This document shows positions 3-34,077 of a DNA stretch of 34,077 nt, piece after piece; the first letter of the stretch is position 1, and every line of letters starts with the position of its first letter. The notes below the pieces were generated by a model. It ran no database searches. It was not told the origin of the DNA and saw nothing but the letters and a program-made list of their open reading frames with translations. The stretch is from IMG/VR virus record IMGVR_UViG_3300035665_000149, positions 1 through 34,077 of that record; one strand, given 5' to 3'. The DNA is from a virus. A program made the position numbers and the translations under genes.

Positions 3-140
3 AACGGGATTGATTTGGCCAATGAGGTACACGACCTGCGCGATCTGACCGAGCGGTATTGGCGCATCATACAAGCGCAGCACGTTCGGATCGCGTTGCT
101 AGAGAACGAATTACGATGTGCGAAGACTGCGAAGCCCTAG
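3..140 (+). CDS. Small phage protein, 3' end only
   Basis: The reading frame is open from the window edge and ends at TAG 138-140, giving at least 45 residues (ends LRCAKTAKP). It is charged and probably helical, with Leu spaced as in a short coiled coil. The 5' end is outside the window. Its last 25 bases overlap the next gene, which starts at 116, as is usual for tightly packed phage genes. No family is recognised. The main doubt is that it is short and cut. Confidence 0.45.
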   Translation, partial: NGIDLANEVHDLRDLTERYWRIIQAQHVRIALLENELRCAKTAKP

Positions 141-298
141 AGGAGGAGGCCGAGTTTTATGCGAGTGATGCCGCGCGTTGGCGGGAGATGTATGAAATGT
201 CACATAAGCGGGAAAGGATGTTGGCCGAACAACTGTCGACGTTGCTCGAGAGCCTGCGTAGGGTAGCGCGAGAGGCGCGCGGAGTTGGGCGGAATTAG
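116..298 (+). CDS. Small CxxC helical protein, unknown function
   Basis: This is a 60-residue protein starting at ATG 116; the frame extends upstream to a TTG, but the ATG leaves a shorter overlap with the previous gene. It begins MCEDCEALEEEAEF, so it has a CxxC pair at residues 2-5. The remainder is acidic, then basic, and strongly helical (coiled-coil-like). A single CxxC is not enough for a full zinc ribbon. It is the last plus-strand gene before the terminator at 310-334. No function can be assigned. Confidence 0.6.
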   Translation: MCEDCEALEEEAEFYASDAARWREMYEMSHKRERMLAEQLSTLLESLRRVAREARGVGRN

Positions 299-3415: not shown

Positions 3416-3502
3416 ATGTTTCAGGTGGCGCAGAAGGTACACGGTCGTTTATTTGACGACACAAGGAATTTAGAGCATCTTCAGGGAAAGTCAACTGTAT
3501 GA
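3416..3502 (+). CDS. Possible 28-residue leader ORF coupled to the terminase
   Basis: ATG 3416 to TGA 3500-3502 gives MFQVAQKVHGRLFDDTRNLE and eight more residues. Its stop overlaps the terminase start as ATGA, the usual arrangement for coupled phage genes. The coding look is acceptable but the size is too small to be sure. It is not a known small terminase subunit. Confidence 0.25.
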   Translation: MFQVAQKVHGRLFDDTRNLEHLQGKSTV

Positions 3503-5217
3503 ATGAAGAAAATCAGGAAATTATTGAGAAAGTTTTAGCCTACAAGCTGGAGGAACATCCAACGCTCCCGGCACCGAACAAGCGGCAGCGGCTGGAGATG
3601 ATCGAGAACATTGGCCCGGAGAAGGTGCTCGATCTTTTCCTCATGCGGGAGAACAAGATTAAGGCTGAGCAGAACGATCCGATGCGCTATGGCCACGAGC
3701 TGCCGCACTGGCCCGATGCAGATAAGCTGCTAGACCGCTTTAACGAGATCGTCGTCCTTGGGGGGAACAGAAGTGGCAAGACTGAGTACGCTGCCAAACG
3801 GATGGCCCAGGCTTTTGTAGGGACTGACCTTAATGGACAAGCGCCGTCTTGGGTAAAGGAACGCTACAACAAGCGCAACATCCGCATCTGGTGCTTTCAC
3901 ACTAACCACATGACAAGTGTGTCTGCCCAGCAGAACGTCTTCTATAAGTACCTACCGCCTGAGATACGAAATATTAAACGTACTAATCATACGCAGATTA
4001 GTTTTAGCCAGAAGAACGGGTTTAGCGACAATACGGCGGTGTACATGGGCAACCAGATCTGGTTCCTTAATTACGCCCAGGACATCAAGGTCGTCGAGGG
4101 TGGCGAGGTGGACTACGTCTGGTGCGATGAACTTGTCCCGCAGAACTGGCTCGACACCCTGCGCTACCGTCTGGTGACTAGGTCTGGGAAGCTGATTGTT
4201 ACTTTTACGCCGGTGCAAGGGTACACCCAGGTTGTGAAGGAGTACATCAACAGCACCAAGGTGACGGCTACCCGCAAATCTCCATTATTACCCAATAACA
4301 ATGTTCTAACCGTCCCCAAGGGTGAGATGCCATATCAAGCGGAGAACTTGTATGGCAGACATGCCTGCATTTGGTATCATACGGAACTTAACCCGTACAA
4401 CAACTGGGAGCGCATGAAGCAGGAGCTTTCTGGCAGATCCAGCCACGACATTAAGATCCGCGCTTACGGTTGGGCAGATCAGACGGCTGGCTCCGAATTT
4501 CCCATGTTTGGCGACCATAACCTATGGAAAGGTGACGCGGAAGAGGTTATTCCAGAGGGTAGCAACTACATGGCTATTGACCCGGCGGGTGCGCGTAACT
4601 GGTTTATGCTCTGGGCTAGAGTAGACAAGCACGGTATACTATGGGTCTACCGGGAATGGCCGGATCAAAGCTATGGGGAATGGGCGCTTCCTAGTGACAA
4701 GGCGGATGGTCGGGCTGGCCCGGCACAGAAGGCTGGAGCAGGAAGGGGTGTGAACGAGTATACTGACTTGATCTGGAGCCTGGAGACGGCTGGAGACAAG
4801 CGTGAGATGATCGTGGACCGTTGGATTGACCCAAGGACGGCTGGAACGGAGACGATCACCAAGGACGGCGGCATTACAGTGTTGGACTTGCTTTATCAGA
4901 CTGATAATCCGCTTATGTTTACTCCTGCGGCTGCCATGCCAATTGAGGAGCGTGTGATGATTATCAATGATCTTTTGTCATGGAATGTAGAAAATCCAAT
5001 GGTAAAAGGTGTAAATCATCCAAAACTAATGGTTCACGAGTCTTGCCAGAACTTAATATACAGCTTAAAGGAATGGACTGGACAAGATGGACAAAAAGGT
5101 GCTAGTAAAGATCCAATTGACGCCTTAGGGTATATGGTGGTAATGCAGCCACAATATTTTGGAGGCGAACAATGGGAAAAGCAGATGAAGCAAATGGCTA
5201 AATGCGGTTCCTATTGA
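3499..5217 (+). CDS. terL: Terminase large subunit (packaging ATPase/nuclease)
   Basis: The 572-residue protein has the two TerL domains. The ATPase domain has Walker A GGNRSGKT (88-95), Walker B VDYVWCDE (204-211, with catalytic Glu 211) and the coupling motif VTFTP (234-238). The RNase H-like nuclease domain has candidate acidic metal ligands at MAIDPAG (Asp 361), WIDPRT (Asp 444) and KDPIDALGYM (Asp 538/541). TerL powers DNA translocation into the prohead through the portal and cuts concatemers. It begins the structural operon and is followed 13 bases later by the portal. The leader AGGGAAAG is at best a weak SD. No recognisable small subunit gene is found upstream. The length is normal for the family. 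Confidence 0.95.
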   Translation: MNEENQEIIEKVLAYKLEEHPTLPAPNKRQRLEMIENIGPEKVLDLFLMRENKIKAEQNDPMRYGHELPHWPDADKLLDRFNEIVVLGGNRSGKTEYAAKRMAQAFVGTDLNGQAPSWVKERYNKRNIRIWCFHTNHMTSVSAQQNVFYKYLPPEIRNIKRTNHTQISFSQKNGFSDNTAVYMGNQIWFLNYAQDIKVVEGGEVDYVWCDELVPQNWLDTLRYRLVTRSGKLIVTFTPVQGYTQVVKEYINSTKVTATRKSPLLPNNNVLTVPKGEMPYQAENLYGRHACIWYHTELNPYNNWERMKQELSGRSSHDIKIRAYGWADQTAGSEFPMFGDHNLWKGDAEEVIPEGSNYMAIDPAGARNWFMLWARVDKHGILWVYREWPDQSYGEWALPSDKADGRAGPAQKAGAGRGVNEYTDLIWSLETAGDKREMIVDRWIDPRTAGTETITKDGGITVLDLLYQTDNPLMFTPAAAMPIEERVMIINDLLSWNVENPMVKGVNHPKLMVHESCQNLIYSLKEWTGQDGQKGASKDPIDALGYMVVMQPQYFGGEQWEKQMKQMAKCGSY

Positions 5218-12685: not shown

Positions 12686-14944
12686 ATGGGCATCAGAATT
12701 ACAGACTTAGCCTCGGCCTCAACGGTTGGCTTAACAGACACACTTGTACTTGTTCAGGCTGGAGACACTAAAAAGTGTGAAGTCTCGCAGGTTAAAACGC
12801 TCAACGCATCAGAGATTGTCAGCGGCACTCTTGGTGTAGCCAGGCTGCCTGTTGTTCCAGTTTCGCTTGGTGGCACAGGATCGGTGGACGCTACGTCTGC
12901 GGTTGCCGCACTTGGCGCACAGCCTGCGCTTACTTCGAGCGCTCCGGCTGCGATTGTGCAAGGTGGCACAGGAGCGACTACAGCAGTGGCTGCACTGGAT
13001 GCACTTGGTGGGATTACCTCTGCTGTGGTGCCGTCGCTAGTGACCGCTCAATTGTCTGCGTACACGCTTCTGACGCAATCGGCTGCTTACCAAAACAGCG
13101 AACAAGTTCTTGCGCTTGCTTCTGGTCAAATCGCAGCCATTACTCCCGCGTCTATTGGAGCCTTGCCAACGGAAGCCGCTTCTGGTTTTGCCACAACTGC
13201 TCAAGTTGTTGGGATTGCAAACACAGCTCAATTAGCAGCATTTCAAGACAGCGCACAAGTCCAAGCGTTAACCGTATCGCAACTTAGCGCAATTAGTATT
13301 ACTGCCGGGGCGGGGCTTGTAGGCGGAGGACCATTGTCCAGTAGCAGCATTATTGCGCTTGAAACAACTGGAGTTTCGGCAGGCACATTTGGAACAGCTA
13401 TCAGTGTGGCGCAGTTTACGGTTAACGACAAAGGTCAGATCACAAATGCCACGAATGTTGGCATATCTGGGACTGCTGGAGGAACGGTTGTATCTGTCGG
13501 CGCAACATCTTCCACGCTGGCAATTTCAAACAGCCCTGTAACTTATTCTGGGGCGCTACAGCTTGAGTTGTCTACTACTGGCGTGCCTGCAATCACAGCA
13601 GGATCAAGCACGCAGTCAGCAGTTATCACAGTTGACGCTTACGGTCGAGTGACGGCCCTTGAGACGCAGGCAATACAATCACTTTCTCCAAGCGGAGTTG
13701 TTTCTGGATCTTACGGTCATCCTGAGCGTGTTGCTCAGTTTACGGTAGATACAAATGGAATTATTACTGGCGCAACCGAGGCTGCTATAGCCATTCCTGC
13801 TGCCGCCGTAAGTGGGTTGGCTGCTTCTGCCACCAGTGACACGACTAATGCTGGCAACATTATTACTGGCACACTAAGCTCTGCAAGAATCTCGGTGCTG
13901 GCATCTTCTCAGATTTCTGGCATTTCAGCAGCACAGGTTTCAAGTGGGATTACGTCGGCACAGGTAACGGGACTTTCTGCTTCGCAAGTAGGATCTGGCA
14001 TCACATCTGCGCAAGTTACAGGTATAACAGCAGCGCAGGTAGGAACTGGTATTACATCTGCGCAAATTGCAGGAATAAGCGCAGCTCAAGTTGCCACTGG
14101 CATTACGTCAGCGCAAATCACAGGCTTATCTGCCGCTCAGGTTGGAACTGGAATTACGTCTGCTCAGATTAATACGCTTCCAGCAACCAAAATTGCCACA
14201 GGTATCACATCAGCGCAAATAACAGGTTTATCTGCTGCACAAGTTGGAACAGGTATTACATCAGCGCAAATCAATACACTTCCAGTAGCTAAAATTAGCG
14301 GGCTTGCAACATCGGCTACAACGGACACAACAAACGCTACTAATATTACCACTGGAACACTTGCTTCTGCCAGAGTTGGGACAGGATTAACATCAGCGCA
14401 AATTGTTGGGTTATCAGCAGCTCAAATTAGCACGGGAATTACTTCCGCACAAATAACTGGAATTAGTGTTACTCAAGTTGGTTCGCTTGGAACTGGCGTA
14501 TCTACATTTTTACAAACTCCATCAAGCGCAAATCTTCTTTCTGCTGTAACTGACGAAAGTGGAACTGGAACACTTGTATTTTCCACATCTCCGACAATTG
14601 CTGCACCTACAATCAACGGCTATACGGAGGGCACTGTTGCGCAGGGAACGGTTGGAGCAACGGCAACGCTAGCCATTACGGCAGGCACGGTTATTACGGC
14701 AACGCTTACATCTGCGACACCTTGCACATTCACAATGCCAGCAGTTGGAGTTGGAAAGTCGTTTGCAGTGTACCTTAAGCAGCCTGCCACTGGCACTGCA
14801 ACAACAGCTACGTTTACAGGAGTTAAATGGGCATCTGAAGTGGCTCCAACAATTACAGCAGCACTTGGAAAAATGGATATTCTTTCATTTACTTCTGACG
14901 GAGTAAATTGGTATGGCTCATTTATTCAAAACTTTACTTATTAA
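12686..14944 (+). CDS. Long repetitive tail fibre, copy 1
   Basis: The 752-residue protein is Ala/Thr/Ser/Gly/Ile-rich and low in Cys and Trp, as in trimeric fibres. The N-terminus (MGIRITDLASASTVGLTDTL) is a likely attachment domain also common in phage fibre/spike proteins. Residues about 421-600 hold a 17-residue repeat, GITSAQ[V/I]TGLSAAQVGT-like, in at least seven consecutive copies and two more after a short spacer. The C-terminal about 130 residues lack the repeat and look globular (LAITAGTVITATLTSATPCT, FAVYLKQ); they may be the receptor-binding or capping domain. It shares the IAAITPASIGA motif with the fibre at 16108, so the two are paralogues. It acts outside the cell in host attachment. 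Confidence 0.8.
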   Translation: MGIRITDLASASTVGLTDTLVLVQAGDTKKCEVSQVKTLNASEIVSGTLGVARLPVVPVSLGGTGSVDATSAVAALGAQPALTSSAPAAIVQGGTGATTAVAALDALGGITSAVVPSLVTAQLSAYTLLTQSAAYQNSEQVLALASGQIAAITPASIGALPTEAASGFATTAQVVGIANTAQLAAFQDSAQVQALTVSQLSAISITAGAGLVGGGPLSSSSIIALETTGVSAGTFGTAISVAQFTVNDKGQITNATNVGISGTAGGTVVSVGATSSTLAISNSPVTYSGALQLELSTTGVPAITAGSSTQSAVITVDAYGRVTALETQAIQSLSPSGVVSGSYGHPERVAQFTVDTNGIITGATEAAIAIPAAAVSGLAASATSDTTNAGNIITGTLSSARISVLASSQISGISAAQVSSGITSAQVTGLSASQVGSGITSAQVTGITAAQVGTGITSAQIAGISAAQVATGITSAQITGLSAAQVGTGITSAQINTLPATKIATGITSAQITGLSAAQVGTGITSAQINTLPVAKISGLATSATTDTTNATNITTGTLASARVGTGLTSAQIVGLSAAQISTGITSAQITGISVTQVGSLGTGVSTFLQTPSSANLLSAVTDESGTGTLVFSTSPTIAAPTINGYTEGTVAQGTVGATATLAITAGTVITATLTSATPCTFTMPAVGVGKSFAVYLKQPATGTATTATFTGVKWASEVAPTITAALGKMDILSFTSDGVNWYGSFIQNFTY
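13946..14302 (+). repeat. 51-bp coding tandem repeats in fibre copy 1
   Basis: Seven consecutive degenerate units of 51 bases (17 codons) begin with GITSAQ[V/I] and mostly end in QVGT or KIAT. The units are similar in protein but silently divergent in DNA, so they are old or under drift. Two further units lie at 14384-14485. Confidence 0.8.
14384..14485 (+). repeat. Second block of 51-bp fibre repeats
   Basis: Two units of the same 17-residue repeat (GLTSAQIVGLSAAQIST and GITSAQITGISVTQVGS), separated from the first block by a linker ending LASARVGT. Confidence 0.75.
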
Positions 14945-16107: not shown

Positions 16108-18999
16108 ATGGCCGACATCAAAATCTCTGCACTTCCATCAGCAGCCGTTGTTAACCCGGCTGATATCGTTGTTCTTAACCAAGGCGGCACGACTAAGACC
16201 GCGACTCAATCGCTTGTTGTAGCTGGACTAGCAACTACCAGCCAGATCTCCGGCCTTGCTACGACAGCTCAACTGTCTGGATTTGCAACTACTGACCAAA
16301 TTAGCGGGCTTACAAACACGGCACAGGTTGAAGCAATCACGTCGGCACAAATTGCTGCAATTACTCCTGCTTCTATTGGCGCACTGTCTACGGATGCTGC
16401 ATCCGGGTTTGCCACAACGGCTCAGATTGTTGGCATTGCAGTTACCTCACAGCTTTCCGGCTTTGCGACTACTGACCAGATCAGTGGGTTCACTAACAGT
16501 GCTCAAGTTCAATCACTAGCATCCGCGCAGATAGCGGCTATCACGCCAGCTTCTATTGGAGCTTTTGCTACAAGCGCAATCATTGGCATTGGCAATGGCG
16601 GCACTGGAGCCACAGACGCACCTAGCGCACTTGCTGCATTAGGCGGGATTACTTCAGCTCAAGTGCCAGCTTTAGACACGGCTCAGTTGTCCGCTTATGT
16701 GCTGAAAGCTGGGTCCACGATGGATGGTCGCCTTATCATGGCGGCAACCACAGCACAGGCTAAAGCTAACATTGGAGGCGCTCTTCCCGGAGTTGCAGCA
16801 CCATCCACTTCAATTGCTGGAGACGTTTGGGTTAGCAACCAAAGTAAGCTTACGTTTTCTCCAAGCACAGGCGTAGCAGTAGGAGTTGCCGGACTTACTC
16901 AAGCAAACACGTTTAATCAGACTCAAACTATTGGCGTTGGCGGAACGGTAAACGCGCTTACGGTTCAGCAAAACGGAACAGGTAAAGCGGCCTCGTTTTC
17001 TGCTGCTAGCACTACTGCTGCCGTGTCAATCACGCAGACTGGCATTGGTGAAGCCTTCCGAGTTGAAGATGAAACCAGCCCGGACACAACTGCATTTGTT
17101 ATCTCTGCTTCTGGCCGAGTGGGGATTGGAGCAACTCCAGATGCAGTCACTGCTCTAGCTGTGGATTCCGGCGGGATTAAGTTTGGCGACGGCTCCATTC
17201 AGACAAGTGCTGCTGGAGCATTTTCTAGCGCACAGCTTTCTGGCTACGCAACTACGACGGATATTCAAGGGATTGCGGTTACTTCGCAGTTGTCTGCGTT
17301 TGCAACGACTGATCAGCTTAGTGGATACGCCACAACAACAGACATCCAAGGTATTGCGTTTACTTCGCAACTATCTGCATTCATTAACAGCACGCAAGTT
17401 CAATCATTAACCTCCACTCAGATTGCTGCAATCACTCCAGCATCGATTGGCGCGTTTGCTACAAGTGCTATTATTGCTATCGGAAACGGCGGGACAGGAT
17501 CGACAGACGCTGTAAGTGCACTAGCTGCGCTTGGCGCTGCTCCGTTAGAATCTCCTGCTTTTACTGGCACGCCCACGGCTCCAACTGCTGCTGCTCACAC
17601 TAGCACGACGCAAGTAGCCACAACTGCGTTTGTGATGTCCAACTCGGGAGATCGTTACCTGACAACGTCTACTAGCACAAATACTATTGGTAATGGCACA
17701 AAGACATTTACGGTTGAACCCGGATTAAGCTACACGCCAACCCAAGATTGCACAATTGTCTTTGACGCAAGCAACCATATGCACGGTCTTGTGTCGTCTT
17801 ACTCAGGTACAACGCTTGTAGTAGATGTTACGCAGCATACTGGATCAGGCTCGTACAGTGCGTGGACAATCAATGTAGGCGGACTTACGACGGCTGCTGG
17901 AGCACTGTTATCTGCAAACAATCTGTCTGATGTTGCTAGTGCATCAACCTCACTAACCAACCTTGGCGGCGTGTCTACGGCGAGGACAATCTCTGCCGGA
18001 ACTGGGTTGTCTGGTGGTGGTGACCTGACGGCAGACAGAACTTTATCTTTGGCAGATACATCAGTTACGGCTGGATCTTACGGGTCTTCTACGCAAATTG
18101 CCGCGTTAACTGTAGATGCTCAAGGTAGGTTGACTGCTGCTTCGAGCATCGCGTTTACATCCCAAAATGTTCAGACTTTTCCAACTGTAGGAACAGCAAC
18201 GTGGACAAAGCCAGCCGGAGCAAAGCGAGTTCGGGTTCAGCTTTGGAGCGGAGGAGGCGGAGGCGCATCAGGAAGAAAAGGAGCTGCTGCAACAATCAGG
18301 TGCGGCGGAGGTGGTGGAGGGTCTGGGGCTTACTACGACAGCATTCTCGATGCATCAATTTTGGGAGCAACCGAGACGGTCACTATTGGTGCAGGCGGAA
18401 CCGCTGGAGCATCAATGGCCACAAACAGCACTAATGGACTAGCTGGAGGCCAAGGCGGAACTACATCGTTTGGTTCCCATGTATCGCTTTTTGGTGGAAA
18501 TGGAGGATCTGGTGGAACTAATACAACAGGAAACGCAGGCGGAGGAGGTGTTGGAGGAAATACAGGAGGGGGAGCAAGTACTACTGGAGCTAATGGTGTC
18601 AACGGGACTCCATCCACGACAGGAACAACTTGCACGCAAGCAAGCGGAGGTGGCGCAGCAGGCGCTGGAATTACTAGTGCTGACGTAGCAAGTACTGGCG
18701 CAGCAGGCGGAAGATTTCCATTGTTGAACTATGCAGGCGGCGCGGGGGGGAGCATTAACGGAAGTGGAGGAAATGGAACTTCAATGGTTGCATTGCCCAC
18801 AACTGGCACACCATGTGGTGCGTCTGGTGGTGGATCTGGCGGCTCTTCAATCACTGGCAATGCAGGCGCTGGCGGGAATGGTGGATTCCCCGGCGGTGGA
18901 GGAGCAGGTGGCGGAGCAGCATTGGACAGTGTTGGAAACTCAGGCGCAGGCGGAACTGGCGGCGCTGGAGCAGCAATTATCACAACATATTTTTACTAA
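16108..18999 (+). CDS. Long repetitive tail fibre, copy 2, glycine-rich tip
   Basis: The 963-residue protein starts MADIKISALPSAAVVNPADI. Its N-terminal two-thirds repeat short blocks such as FATTDQISGF, VTSQLSAFATT and IAAITPASIGA, with two long internal duplications (around residues 30-190 and 375-480). APLESPAFTGTPTAPTAAAH is a common phage fibre block (from about residue 482). From about residue 685 (QNVQTFPTVGTATWTKPAGA) it changes to a domain rich in Gly triplets, the glycine-rich fibre tip. It is paralogous to the fibre at 12686 and shares its tip type with 14948. It probably binds the host surface. The Gly-rich part may be prone to phase or length change. Confidence 0.85.
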   Translation: MADIKISALPSAAVVNPADIVVLNQGGTTKTATQSLVVAGLATTSQISGLATTAQLSGFATTDQISGLTNTAQVEAITSAQIAAITPASIGALSTDAASGFATTAQIVGIAVTSQLSGFATTDQISGFTNSAQVQSLASAQIAAITPASIGAFATSAIIGIGNGGTGATDAPSALAALGGITSAQVPALDTAQLSAYVLKAGSTMDGRLIMAATTAQAKANIGGALPGVAAPSTSIAGDVWVSNQSKLTFSPSTGVAVGVAGLTQANTFNQTQTIGVGGTVNALTVQQNGTGKAASFSAASTTAAVSITQTGIGEAFRVEDETSPDTTAFVISASGRVGIGATPDAVTALAVDSGGIKFGDGSIQTSAAGAFSSAQLSGYATTTDIQGIAVTSQLSAFATTDQLSGYATTTDIQGIAFTSQLSAFINSTQVQSLTSTQIAAITPASIGAFATSAIIAIGNGGTGSTDAVSALAALGAAPLESPAFTGTPTAPTAAAHTSTTQVATTAFVMSNSGDRYLTTSTSTNTIGNGTKTFTVEPGLSYTPTQDCTIVFDASNHMHGLVSSYSGTTLVVDVTQHTGSGSYSAWTINVGGLTTAAGALLSANNLSDVASASTSLTNLGGVSTARTISAGTGLSGGGDLTADRTLSLADTSVTAGSYGSSTQIAALTVDAQGRLTAASSIAFTSQNVQTFPTVGTATWTKPAGAKRVRVQLWSGGGGGASGRKGAAATIRCGGGGGGSGAYYDSILDASILGATETVTIGAGGTAGASMATNSTNGLAGGQGGTTSFGSHVSLFGGNGGSGGTNTTGNAGGGGVGGNTGGGASTTGANGVNGTPSTTGTTCTQASGGGAAGAGITSADVASTGAAGGRFPLLNYAGGAGGSINGSGGNGTSMVALPTTGTPCGASGGGSGGSSITGNAGAGGNGGFPGGGGAGGGAALDSVGNSGAGGTGGAGAAIITTYFY

Positions 19000-31692: not shown

Positions 31693-31874
31693 AAGCTAAA
31701 GACATTGCTGCAATGGCAAACGTCAGCCTTCAGACAGTCCTGAAGTGGGCGCGTGAAGGTAAGATTCCTCATCACCGCATCAGCGCACGTTGTTTGCGGT
31801 TCAGCATGGAGGAAGTTAACCATTGGCTCCAAGTCAAACGAGATGCCTATAAACAGTCGAGCCAAGGGGTGTAG
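31686..31874 (+). CDS. Excisionase-like winged HTH protein
   Basis: The 62-residue protein reads IAAMANVSLQTVLKWAREGK and IPHHRISARCLRFSMEEVNH, the excisionase/MerR-type HTH pattern (HTH_17). It starts inside the end of the OB-fold gene and its own end overlaps the nuclease gene. In temperate phages such proteins direct excision, but no integrase is seen here and this protein may be a replication or transcription factor. It is complete at this length. Confidence 0.75.
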   Translation: MVKAKDIAAMANVSLQTVLKWAREGKIPHHRISARCLRFSMEEVNHWLQVKRDAYKQSSQGV

Positions 31875-32238
31875 AGGCGAACGCCTCTGGCGCGACGAGT
31901 TGCGTGCGGCGGGCTTCACGGCCCGTCGTGGGCAACAGTTTGCCGGAGGTGGCGACAGCCCGGATGTGGTGTGCGAGGAGCTGCGCGGACTACACCAAGA
32001 GGTGAAGTTTGTCGAGAACCTCAACCTCATCAAGGCCACTGAGCAGGCAGAACGTGATGGCGCCGGAAAGCCGTGGATCGTTGCTCACAAGAAGAACCGT
32101 ACACCCTGGCTAGTCACGATGAACGCTGAGTTGTTCTTCCGGCTGCTCAGGGATGGGATGGATACTTTTGCAACACTCTCTGACGAGAGATCGGGAACGC
32201 CGCCAAGAGTCAATGGGCGTGACACTGGGAGAGACTAG
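31843..32238 (+). CDS. PDDEXK nuclease, Holliday-junction-resolvase-like
   Basis: Using ATG 31843 the protein has 131 residues; the frame is open from 31753, but upstream residues overlap the HTH gene and look unrelated. It has GERLW with Glu 13, then GGGDSPDVV with Asp 41 and HQEVKF with Glu 53 and Lys 55, so it has the E, D, E-x-K catalytic set of the PDDEXK fold. Basic residues near Lys 8-Arg 31 would bind DNA. Related phage proteins resolve or cut branched DNA before packaging. Substrate choice is not shown. Confidence 0.75.
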   Translation: MPINSRAKGCRGERLWRDELRAAGFTARRGQQFAGGGDSPDVVCEELRGLHQEVKFVENLNLIKATEQAERDGAGKPWIVAHKKNRTPWLVTMNAELFFRLLRDGMDTFATLSDERSGTPPRVNGRDTGRD

Positions 32239-32571: not shown

Positions 32572-32614
32572 TTCTGCACACAGCAGGGGTGCGCCTGCAC
32601 AACGCACACATTTT

Positions 32615-33163
32615 ATGAACATCAGCATCAATATAACATACAAATCCGGCACCAAAGTCGAGCTGGTCGTCCCTCTCGAGGAGCCATGCCAGATCGTTAG
32701 CGAGCCAGAATCACCTGTGACGCCTGAGCCGGTACAGTCTGCACAGGACTTGGCTGACGCCATGTGCATCGTCACGAACAAAGAACTCGAGTCGTCAGGT
32801 AAGCGGTACACGTCCGTTAAAGAAATGGTGGACGAGCTTTGCCAAGGCCCCGAGTCAGGCAAGACGATGAGCATGTACAACATGACATTCCAGACTCAAG
32901 ACGGAAAAGACTGGCAGGTGCCTCCCGGCCTGATGAAAGATCTGGTCATCATCTACGGCGAGAAGACCGTGGAGCAGGAGCTACTAAAGGCTCACGCCTG
33001 GCTCGAAGCTGACACTCACCGGCGCAAGACCGCTCGCGGCATGGGGCGCTTTCTCAATGGCTGGCTATCCCGTGCATCGTCAATGGTGCGTACGCCAATC
33101 AAGACGCTTCTTAAGCGCGACACTTTAATGGCATCAAATGGAAGCACCCAAGAAAGCTGGTAG
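32615..33163 (+). CDS. Helicase-loader-like replication protein
   Basis: The frame opens with TTG at 32564, but ATG 32615 begins the plausible protein (MNISINITYKSGTKVELVVP), 182 residues long. The C-terminal half, VPPGLMKDLVIIYGEKTVEQ then HRRKTARGMGRFLNGWLSRA, matches the helical 'arrangement' found in phage replication/helicase-loading proteins (DnaT/replisome-organiser-like). It lies immediately before and overlaps the DnaB gene, so it would load the helicase. The C-terminal tail is basic and Ser-rich. The assignment is by pattern. Confidence 0.65.
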   Translation: MNISINITYKSGTKVELVVPLEEPCQIVSEPESPVTPEPVQSAQDLADAMCIVTNKELESSGKRYTSVKEMVDELCQGPESGKTMSMYNMTFQTQDGKDWQVPPGLMKDLVIIYGEKTVEQELLKAHAWLEADTHRRKTARGMGRFLNGWLSRASSMVRTPIKTLLKRDTLMASNGSTQESW

Positions 33164-33848
33164 GCGTAAGCCTGTAGAGTTGCCACCCGACACGGTGGTG
33201 CCAACCGCGAGCGAGGCTGAACGTGGGATTGCGTCGATTGCACTGAACCATCCAGAGGTGTTCTTGCATCACATCTCGGAGAAGAACTTCAAGGTGGCGG
33301 ACATTTTCGATCCGCTCAGTCATAGGGTATGCGAGATCATTTTGCAGCAGCAGAGCCGCAACGCCAGCTCGGAGATCCGTGTCGTATTTGAGAAGGTGCG
33401 CGAGACACTGCCTCAGGTGCAATTCCACGAACTGAGCGAGCTCTACACGCTCATGCCGATTGCGTCAGCAATTGGTGACCTCATCGAGATAGTCAAGTCC
33501 ACGGCCAAGCGTCGCACCTTGCAGCATGTTGCTTACGAGACGCTCATGGCTATCGGCGACCAGACGCAGCAGACGCCGGAGCTGTTAAGTGATGTCGTGA
33601 TGAAGGTTGAGAGCCTGTCCCGTGAACTGGCCCCACCGAAAGTCATGGATACGAAGGCGCTCTTGCTTAATGCGCTGACACGCTACGAGACTGGCGATGA
33701 CGAATCTATGCGGATCAAAACCGGCTACTCCGCTATCGACAACATCTGCCCGATCAGATACGGAGACTTTGTCGTCATCGGTGGCGAAACTAAGTCCGGC
33801 AAAACCATGCTGGCACTCAACATCATTGCAAACTTAATAAATGAATAA
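33138..33848 (+). CDS. DnaB-like replicative helicase, truncated after Walker A
   Basis: ATG 33138 overlaps the previous gene by 26 bases. Residues about 22-120 resemble the DnaB N-terminal domain (SEAERGIASIALNHPE), and 190-236 begin the RecA-type ATPase: TGYSAIDNICPIRYGDFVVI then GGETKSGKT (215-223, Walker A). The frame ends TAA 33846-33848, only 14 residues past the Walker Lys, so Walker B, H4 and other motifs are missing. The following DNA encodes a different protein in frame +1, and no helicase sequence continues in another frame up to the window end. It may be a split gene, a decayed gene, or one completed outside this window. Confidence 0.75.
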   Translation: MEAPKKAGRRKPVELPPDTVVPTASEAERGIASIALNHPEVFLHHISEKNFKVADIFDPLSHRVCEIILQQQSRNASSEIRVVFEKVRETLPQVQFHELSELYTLMPIASAIGDLIEIVKSTAKRRTLQHVAYETLMAIGDQTQQTPELLSDVVMKVESLSRELAPPKVMDTKALLLNALTRYETGDDESMRIKTGYSAIDNICPIRYGDFVVIGGETKSGKTMLALNIIANLINE

Positions 33849-34077
33849 GCTTATCAACCTTACCCCTCATGACATAGTCATCACTGGCTATGGCATCGTC
33901 GAGCCTAGCGGAAACTCAGTCAAAGTACACTCACACTTGTCTAAGGTGGACGACATAGACGGTGTACCCATCATGTGCTGCAAGGACGCTCGTGTGAGCA
34001 ATCTGCCTGATCCAATTAAGGGTGTACTTTACATTGTGCCGGGCTATGTGCGCACTGCACTGCCGCACAGGAAAGAT
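33841..34077 (+). CDS. INLTPHDIVI-type phage protein, 5' part
   Basis: ATG 33841 overlaps the DnaB stop by eight bases and runs to the window end (79 codons without stop). The sequence NKLINLTPHDIVITGYGIVE and VRTALPHRKD is the hallmark of a small phage protein family common beside replication genes; no activity is known to me. It is a separate gene, not a continuation of DnaB. It may extend a little beyond the window. Confidence 0.75.
   Translation, partial: MNKLINLTPHDIVITGYGIVEPSGNSVKVHSHLSKVDDIDGVPIMCCKDARVSNLPDPIKGVLYIVPGYVRTALPHRKD

What the first reader, a model, noticed from the sequence alone, without database searches (positions are those of the whole stretch)
33138..34077. Replicative helicase gene interrupted 14 codons after Walker A
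Seen: a DnaB-like N-domain and Walker A GGETKSGKT are followed by a stop at 33846-33848, and an unrelated phage gene begins 8 bases earlier in another frame. DnaB helicases are about 450 residues, with Walker B, H3 and H4 motifs after this point. Inference: the ATPase domain is split, moved or lost. The P-loop region is also a favoured insertion site for inteins and introns, so a displaced second half downstream is plausible. If the second half is present further on, this is a natural two-piece helicase.
Basis: partly seen in the sequence, partly recalled or inferred. Interest (0 to 1): 0.75.

Follow-up and report, generated by a model that had tools for sequence, protein, structure and literature searches.

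The report
Phage DnaB helicase in two pieces
A clade of phages, known so far from metagenome contigs, carries its replicative DNA helicase as two separate genes, cut through the ATP-binding core with other genes lodged between them, and both pieces are strongly conserved, so the enzyme is probably assembled from two protein chains.

Summary
The window (an IMG/VR phage contig) ends 229 bp after a 236-aa DnaB N-half that stops 13 residues after Walker A. The contig breaks before any second half, so I looked in relatives. All 80 relatives fetched first show the same break. All 69 loci with enough downstream DNA carry the missing half: an ATG-started ORF (194 aa in close relatives) with catalytic Glu, Walker B, H3 and Arg-finger motifs, on the same strand, 1.3-3.6 kb further on (up to 3.8 kb in other relatives). 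In 19 of 19 near-full records DnaB_C is tiled by exactly these two pieces, with no third copy; five have overlapping ends and look like complete circles. Both halves are under strong purifying selection (median omega 0.05 and 0.04; 0.019 for the Walker A piece). No intron was found, no intein lies at dnaB, and in the compact form the genes between overlap or nearly abut. A more distant relative keeps an intact 431-aa gene. Best explanation: a genes-in-pieces replicative helicase whose RecA core forms from two polypeptides; assembly and activity are inferred, not shown. It is a new variant of a known phage phenomenon (split NrdA, gp43, topoisomerase). I found no earlier report of a DnaB split this way.

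The parts
33138..33848 (+). dnaB N-half: N-terminal domain, linker helices, first RecA strand, Walker A and following helix (236 aa)
33780..33806 (+). Walker A, GGETKSGKT, on the N-half only
   Evidence: last 45 codons of the N-half have omega 0.019
33828..33848 (+). break point: end of the N-half (ANLINE then TAA) overlapping the ATG of the next gene (AATGAATAA); lies in the loop between the P-loop helix and the next RecA strand
   Evidence: compared with intact L257 and DnaB structures
33841..34077 (+). first gene of the intervening block (MNKLINLTPHDI..., unknown function), cut by the contig end; 104 aa in L007
   Evidence: present in 69/69 loci; phrog_30542
32597..33163 (+). upstream ORF overlapping the start of the N-half by 26 bp; no PHROG match; a weak homologue sits in two contigs that carry the intact dnaB

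Best explanation
This is the front half of a natural two-gene (genes-in-pieces) DnaB replicative helicase. The ancestral single gene was opened in the loop between the P-loop helix and the next strand of the RecA-type ATPase domain, and a gene block now lies between the halves. In the compact form the block is an INLTPHDI gene, an exonuclease VIII/DUF3799-type nuclease and a small gene; other lineages add or swap a Mom-like protein, a C5-methyltransferase-like gene, a dNMP kinase and others. The parts form a same-strand run of genes with ATGA-type overlaps, so they are probably translated from one mRNA. The two polypeptides (about 236 and 194 aa) then probably bind each other: the N-half supplies the collar domain, linker helix and P-loop strand-helix, the C-half the catalytic Glu, Walker B, H3/H4 and Arg finger, giving a DnaB-like ring of two-chain protomers. 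Shown: the split, conservation of both halves, the order, the selection, and the absence of any other recognisable DnaB. Inferred: single mRNA, physical assembly, hexamer, helicase activity.
For: Same break in 80 relatives. C-half in 69/69 loci with enough downstream DNA, same strand, gap 1.33-3.65 kb, always starting with ATG, often right after an in-frame stop; more relatives. The two profiles tile the same DnaB chains: 2r6a 7-227 and 233-429; phrog_19 154-377 and 381-580; DnaB_C about 2-46 and 46-255, exactly two matches in 19/19 records, five of ten tested with 123- or 127-bp end overlaps. Median omega 0.051 (N), 0.040 (C), 0.019 (last 45 codons with Walker A). Catalytic motifs conserved across both halves. 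The intact relative L257, 431 aa, aligns across the break with only about a one-residue loop difference. Compact locus L012: genes overlap by 4-8 bases or are about 13 bases apart, leaving no room for an intron. AlphaFold leaves the P-loop segment of the lone N-half unstructured, as expected if it needs the partner, though the alignment was shallow.
Against: No protein-level evidence that the halves bind or work. The C-half lacks the Lys two residues before the finger Arg (IP[IY]QRNGP instead of GKQRNGP), a departure from DnaB that the intact relative L257 does not share. AlphaFold models are weak beyond the N domain. The window itself does not reach the C-half.
Confidence: 0.82

Rival explanations
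1. The halves are joined at the RNA level: the 1.3-3.8 kb between them is a giant self-splicing intron carrying genes, or is trans-spliced, giving one DnaB polypeptide.
For: P-loop regions are known insertion sites for introns and inteins (general knowledge); joining the halves would give a full-length DnaB without loss of residues.
Against: No Rfam match at gathering scores in six loci, and no intron family even at E<=5 in the compact locus L012. In L012 the interval is almost wholly coding, with 4-8-base overlaps or about 13-base spacing. The C-half has its own ATG. The sequence just upstream of that ATG differs between phages, unlike a conserved 3' splice site.
Confidence: 0.05
2. The two fragments no longer form one helicase. 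They act separately, for example as a loader, inhibitor or partner that captures the host DnaB.
For: The N-half alone has a fold that matches DnaB N-domain chains; loss of the finger-proximal Lys; phages are known to hijack host DnaB (general knowledge).
Against: Walker A on one half and catalytic Glu, Walker B, the H3 Gln and finger Arg on the other are kept over large divergence (N halves down to about 52-60% identity), and the Walker A segment is the most constrained part of the N-half. Neither piece could hydrolyse ATP alone.
Confidence: 0.1
3. Assembly error, pseudogene or recent frameshift.
For: The contig ends just after the break.
Against: Recurs in all fetched relatives from more than 60 data sets; median omega 0.04-0.05 in both halves; same structure in contigs with end overlaps.
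Confidence: 0.01
4. The halves are ligated after translation, by a split intein or another enzyme.
For: DnaB-type helicases (gp41) are known hosts of split inteins (general knowledge; Dassa et al. 2009 is not held here).
Against: The N-half stops at host sequence with no intein N-fragment, and the C-half starts directly at host sequence. Intein_splicing profile matches in 22 records were all sub-threshold and none lies at dnaB; the one read through is in terL.
Confidence: 0.02

Closest known systems
Aeromonas phage Aeh1 NrdA (split by the mobE homing endonuclease; Friedrich et al. 2007, as described in PMC2988022)
   Same: An essential phage replication/nucleotide enzyme cut through a functionally critical region into two polypeptides that must reassemble.
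   Different: There a homing endonuclease is the insert. Here the constant insert is a three-gene block without one; an HNH gene lies in the gap in only one of 22 records checked for HNH_3 (L033/G021). Here function is inferred.
T4-like gp43A/43B DNA polymerase and T4 gp39/gp60 topoisomerase (PMC2988022)
   Same: Split replication proteins in phages; split gp43 of phage 25 co-purifies and is active.
   Different: Different enzymes and folds. Here the break is inside a P-loop ATPase core and separates Walker A from Walker B.
DnaB replicative helicases (2r6a, 6t66, 6bbm; phage P1 Ban)
   Same: Both halves align to them over nearly their full length.
   Different: One polypeptide in those; two here. 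The Lys before the finger Arg is lost and the loop between H3 and the RES motif is about 11 residues shorter.
gp41/DnaB genes fractured by split inteins (Dassa et al. 2009; from memory, not held in the library)
   Same: A DnaB-type helicase gene in two distant pieces in environmental phages.
   Different: No intein fragments here, so no protein splicing expected.
Intact dnaB of L257/L256/L253/L255 and of phage C75C1 (OQ984151)
   Same: Closest uninterrupted relatives found: N-half 29-34%, C-half 43-44% (L257 group); C75C1 shares the terminase, portal and capsid families.
   Different: One ORF of 431 aa (L257) or 441 aa (C75C1), no inserted block.

Membership tests
DnaB replicative helicase (SF4) | N-terminal collar domain | tested here: met
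   phrog_19 from profile position 154; A2 profile on 2r6a 7-227; Foldseek prob 1.0 to DnaB chains; PF00772 only 14.5 bits, below cut-off
DnaB replicative helicase (SF4) | Walker A with Lys-Thr | tested here: met
   GGETKSGKT in the 11 aligned N-halves; GGPEKSGKT in L159, L164, L166
DnaB replicative helicase (SF4) | Catalytic Glu (SLEM), Walker B Asp, H3 Gln, DNA-loop RES | tested here: met
   SLEM, VDYIQL, ITQLN and RES conserved in the C-half alignments
DnaB replicative helicase (SF4) | Arg finger with the preceding Lys (KQR) | tested here: inconclusive
   Arg invariant, Lys replaced by Ile or Tyr in the alignment; effect not testable here
DnaB replicative helicase (SF4) | Single polypeptide | tested here: not met
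   Two ORFs 1.3-3.8 kb apart
DnaB replicative helicase (SF4) | Hexameric ring with helicase activity | not testable with these tools
   needs purified proteins
Phage genes-in-pieces enzymes (Aeh1 NrdA type) | One domain encoded by two separately translated, conserved ORFs | tested here: met
   two conserved ORFs; separate translation is read from starts and stops, not measured
Phage genes-in-pieces enzymes (Aeh1 NrdA type) | Homing endonuclease as the inserted element | tested here: not met
   HNH_3 in the gap in one of 22 records (G021/L033); GIY-YIG none; PF01844 one match, outside the gap
Phage genes-in-pieces enzymes (Aeh1 NrdA type) | Halves assemble into an active enzyme | not testable with these tools
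   needs co-expression
Split or fractured intein gene | Intein N- and C-fragments at the break | tested here: not met
Group I or II intron | Conserved ribozyme core in the interruption | tested here: not met

The most novel reading that the evidence does not exclude
A replicative helicase whose RecA-type catalytic core is normally built from two independently translated chains, Walker A on one and Walker B and Arg finger on the other, fixed in a phage clade, with the break serving as a landing site for exchangeable DNA-modification and recombination genes.
Probability: 0.7. Interest if true: 0.75.

Novelty: new variant of a known kind. Interest (0 to 1): 0.62.

Why it matters
DnaB-type rings are treated as homohexamers of one chain. 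A stable natural split through the ATPase core would give a two-component helicase for studying assembly, mixed-subunit rings and subunit firing order, and a natural split site for engineering. It shows that phages can tolerate, and keep over long divergence, interruption of an essential motor at its P-loop without splicing. It also warns annotators, who may call the N-half a truncated gene and the C-half a P-loop-less orphan.

Tried and rejected
Intron: Rfam gathering on six loci and E<=5 on L012, nothing intron-like. Intein at dnaB: none. Other helicases in six records: PF00271 none; PF13481 only weak matches to the N-half itself; a third PF03796 match: none. N-half relatives in bacterial genome contigs: none. 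Cultured phages: no N-half match, C-half matches all under 60% identity (best listed 36%). Literature: no split DnaB without intein found in five searches of open-access papers; this is not proof of absence. Tree of C-halves: the intact L253/255/257 form one well-supported group apart from the split rows, but outgroup branches are extreme and the base is unresolved, so a single origin of the split is compatible, not shown. AlphaFold of each half alone is too weak past the N domain to say more. My first Walker A regex was wrong and its output was discarded. The long ORF of cargo cluster 8 is probably a wrong frame over a C5-methyltransferase-like gene.

Full report
What was seen. The window is an IMG/VR phage contig of 34,077 bp. 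Its last complete same-strand gene, 33138-33848, encodes 236 residues ending ...GGETKSGKTMLALNIIANLINE-stop; the next ORF (MNKLINLTPHDI...) begins at 33841 in another frame and runs off the end. The protein matches phrog_19 (DnaB-like helicase, 6e-16, profile 154-377/621) and the first 44-46 of 255 positions of PF03796. PF00772 is below its cut-off, but the predicted N domain matches DnaB structures. The contig itself does not reach a second half.

The break is real and shared. The search for related loci gave 80 relatives (57-100% identity in the best segment) from more than 60 metagenome data sets. In those read, the N-half ends after the P-loop helix; the exact stop shifts by 0-3 codons, or about 25 in one lineage that reads into the next gene out of frame.

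The other half is downstream. In L007 an ORF MNKGILVISLEMPANQIIDRL...VDYIQLV...ITQLNEQGKARES...IQRNGPCGV begins 2.7 kb after the N-half. A tblastn check found it in 69 of 69 loci with enough downstream sequence; the rest (13 entries, including the window and its copy L001) end within 2.33 kb. Strand and order never vary. The gap runs from 1,327 to 3,645 bp, up to 3,789 bp in further relatives. The ORF starts with ATG in nearly all loci (L170 is not resolved) and an in-frame stop sits just upstream in many, so it is neither fused to an upstream gene nor given a second P-loop.

The two pieces make one DnaB. Profiles of the halves align to the same solved chains without overlap: 2r6a 7-227 (N) and 233-429 (C). 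phrog_19 is covered 154-377 and 381-580. In 19 of 19 records of 37-44 kb, PF03796 is hit exactly twice, by positions about 2-46 and 46-255, and nowhere else. Five of ten tested records have 123- or 127-bp exact end overlaps, consistent with circular, complete assemblies; in G013 the break straddles the record ends. PF00271 and PF13481 show no other helicase in six records tested. Other helicase families were not tested.

Both pieces are functional by selection. In the close clade median dN/dS is 0.051 for the N-half (68 sequences) and 0.040 for the C-half (48), and 0.019 for the last 45 N-half codons carrying Walker A. Walker A, catalytic Glu, Walker B, the H3 Gln, RES and the finger Arg are conserved. 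One departure: the Lys two residues before the finger Arg is Ile or Tyr here, while the intact relative L257 keeps it.

What lies between. The constant genes are the INLTPHDI gene (69/69 loci), a nuclease (phrog_412 exonuclease VIII, 1e-54; PF12684 DUF3799) (69/69) and a small gene (66/69). Variable genes include Mom-like, dNMP kinase and queuine-transferase-like proteins, and by sequence a C5-methyltransferase-like gene and, in L033, an HNH gene. The sequence right upstream of the C-half ATG differs between phages, so the block seems to be exchanged up to that codon. In L012 the three genes fill the 1.33-kb gap: N-half and INLTPHDI gene overlap by 8 bases, the nuclease starts about 13 bases after the INLTPHDI stop, and both nuclease/small gene and small gene/C-half overlap as ATGA. 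There is no room for an intron, and Rfam finds none.

Origin. An intact relative exists: L257 encodes a 431-aa DnaB, 29-34% (N; including L256) and 43-44% (C) identical to the split halves, reading GKTMLALNIVANILRQGAPGACVICSLEMP across the site; L257 and L256 share other genes with these phages (a RusA-like gene 78-90% identical, a dNMP kinase). C75C1, which shares the terminase family, has a 441-aa annotated DnaB. The split form is therefore probably derived, by insertion of a gene block in the loop after the P-loop helix; the tree does not settle whether this happened once.

The window's own genome. The homologue of the window's ORF at 59-298 lies about 3 kb past the C-half in L012, so if the genome is circular the window lacks just the stretch that would hold the C-half. 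L006, 97.3% identical over window 33081-34077, has the C-half 1,330 bp after the N-half.

Comparison. Splitting of essential phage enzymes into separately translated halves is known: NrdA of Aeh1, gp43A/B, T4 topoisomerase (PMC2988022). This case works like those by inference. It differs in the enzyme, in cutting Walker A from Walker B inside the RecA fold, in lacking a homing endonuclease in the constant block, and in being found in every member examined of a broad clade. As DnaB, it fails the single-chain criterion and has lost one Lys near the finger. As an intein- or intron-split gene it fails the defining tests.

Noticed in passing
L260:1432-4092 (G001), compare window 3499-5217: In the close relative G001 terL carries an intein-like insert of about 320 aa exactly in its P-loop (GGNR/SGKT), and a 237-aa ORF with an HNH_3 match lies on the opposite strand inside that insert (1808-2521); the window's terL has no insert. 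Similar matches in G004 and G022.
   Followed up: partly
between the dnaB halves, e.g. L056:8016-8705, L261:2302-3952, L077:1396-2603: The break site is a cargo hotspot: Mom-like DNA modification, C5-methyltransferase-like, HNH, dNMP kinase and queuine-transferase-like genes come and go.
   Followed up: partly
C-half, L007:9392-9976: The Lys two residues before the Arg finger is replaced by Ile/Tyr in the aligned split C-halves but kept in the intact relative L257.
   Followed up: partly
window 33841-34077; L007:6704-7018: The INLTPHDI gene of unknown function (phrog_30542) is the constant first gene after the break in 69/69 loci.
   Followed up: no
window 59-298 and L012:11723-11905: The window's left-end ORF is homologous to an ORF about 3 kb past the C-half in L012, so the contig probably lacks only the dnaB-break region of its genome.
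   Followed up: partly
window 12686-14944 and 16108-18999: Long ORFs rich in short GITSAQ/ITPASIGA-type repeats, probably tail-fibre-like proteins.
   Followed up: no
window 31753-32238: RusA-like resolvase (phrog_244) sharing up to 90% identity with the contigs that hold the intact dnaB, suggesting gene exchange.
   Followed up: no
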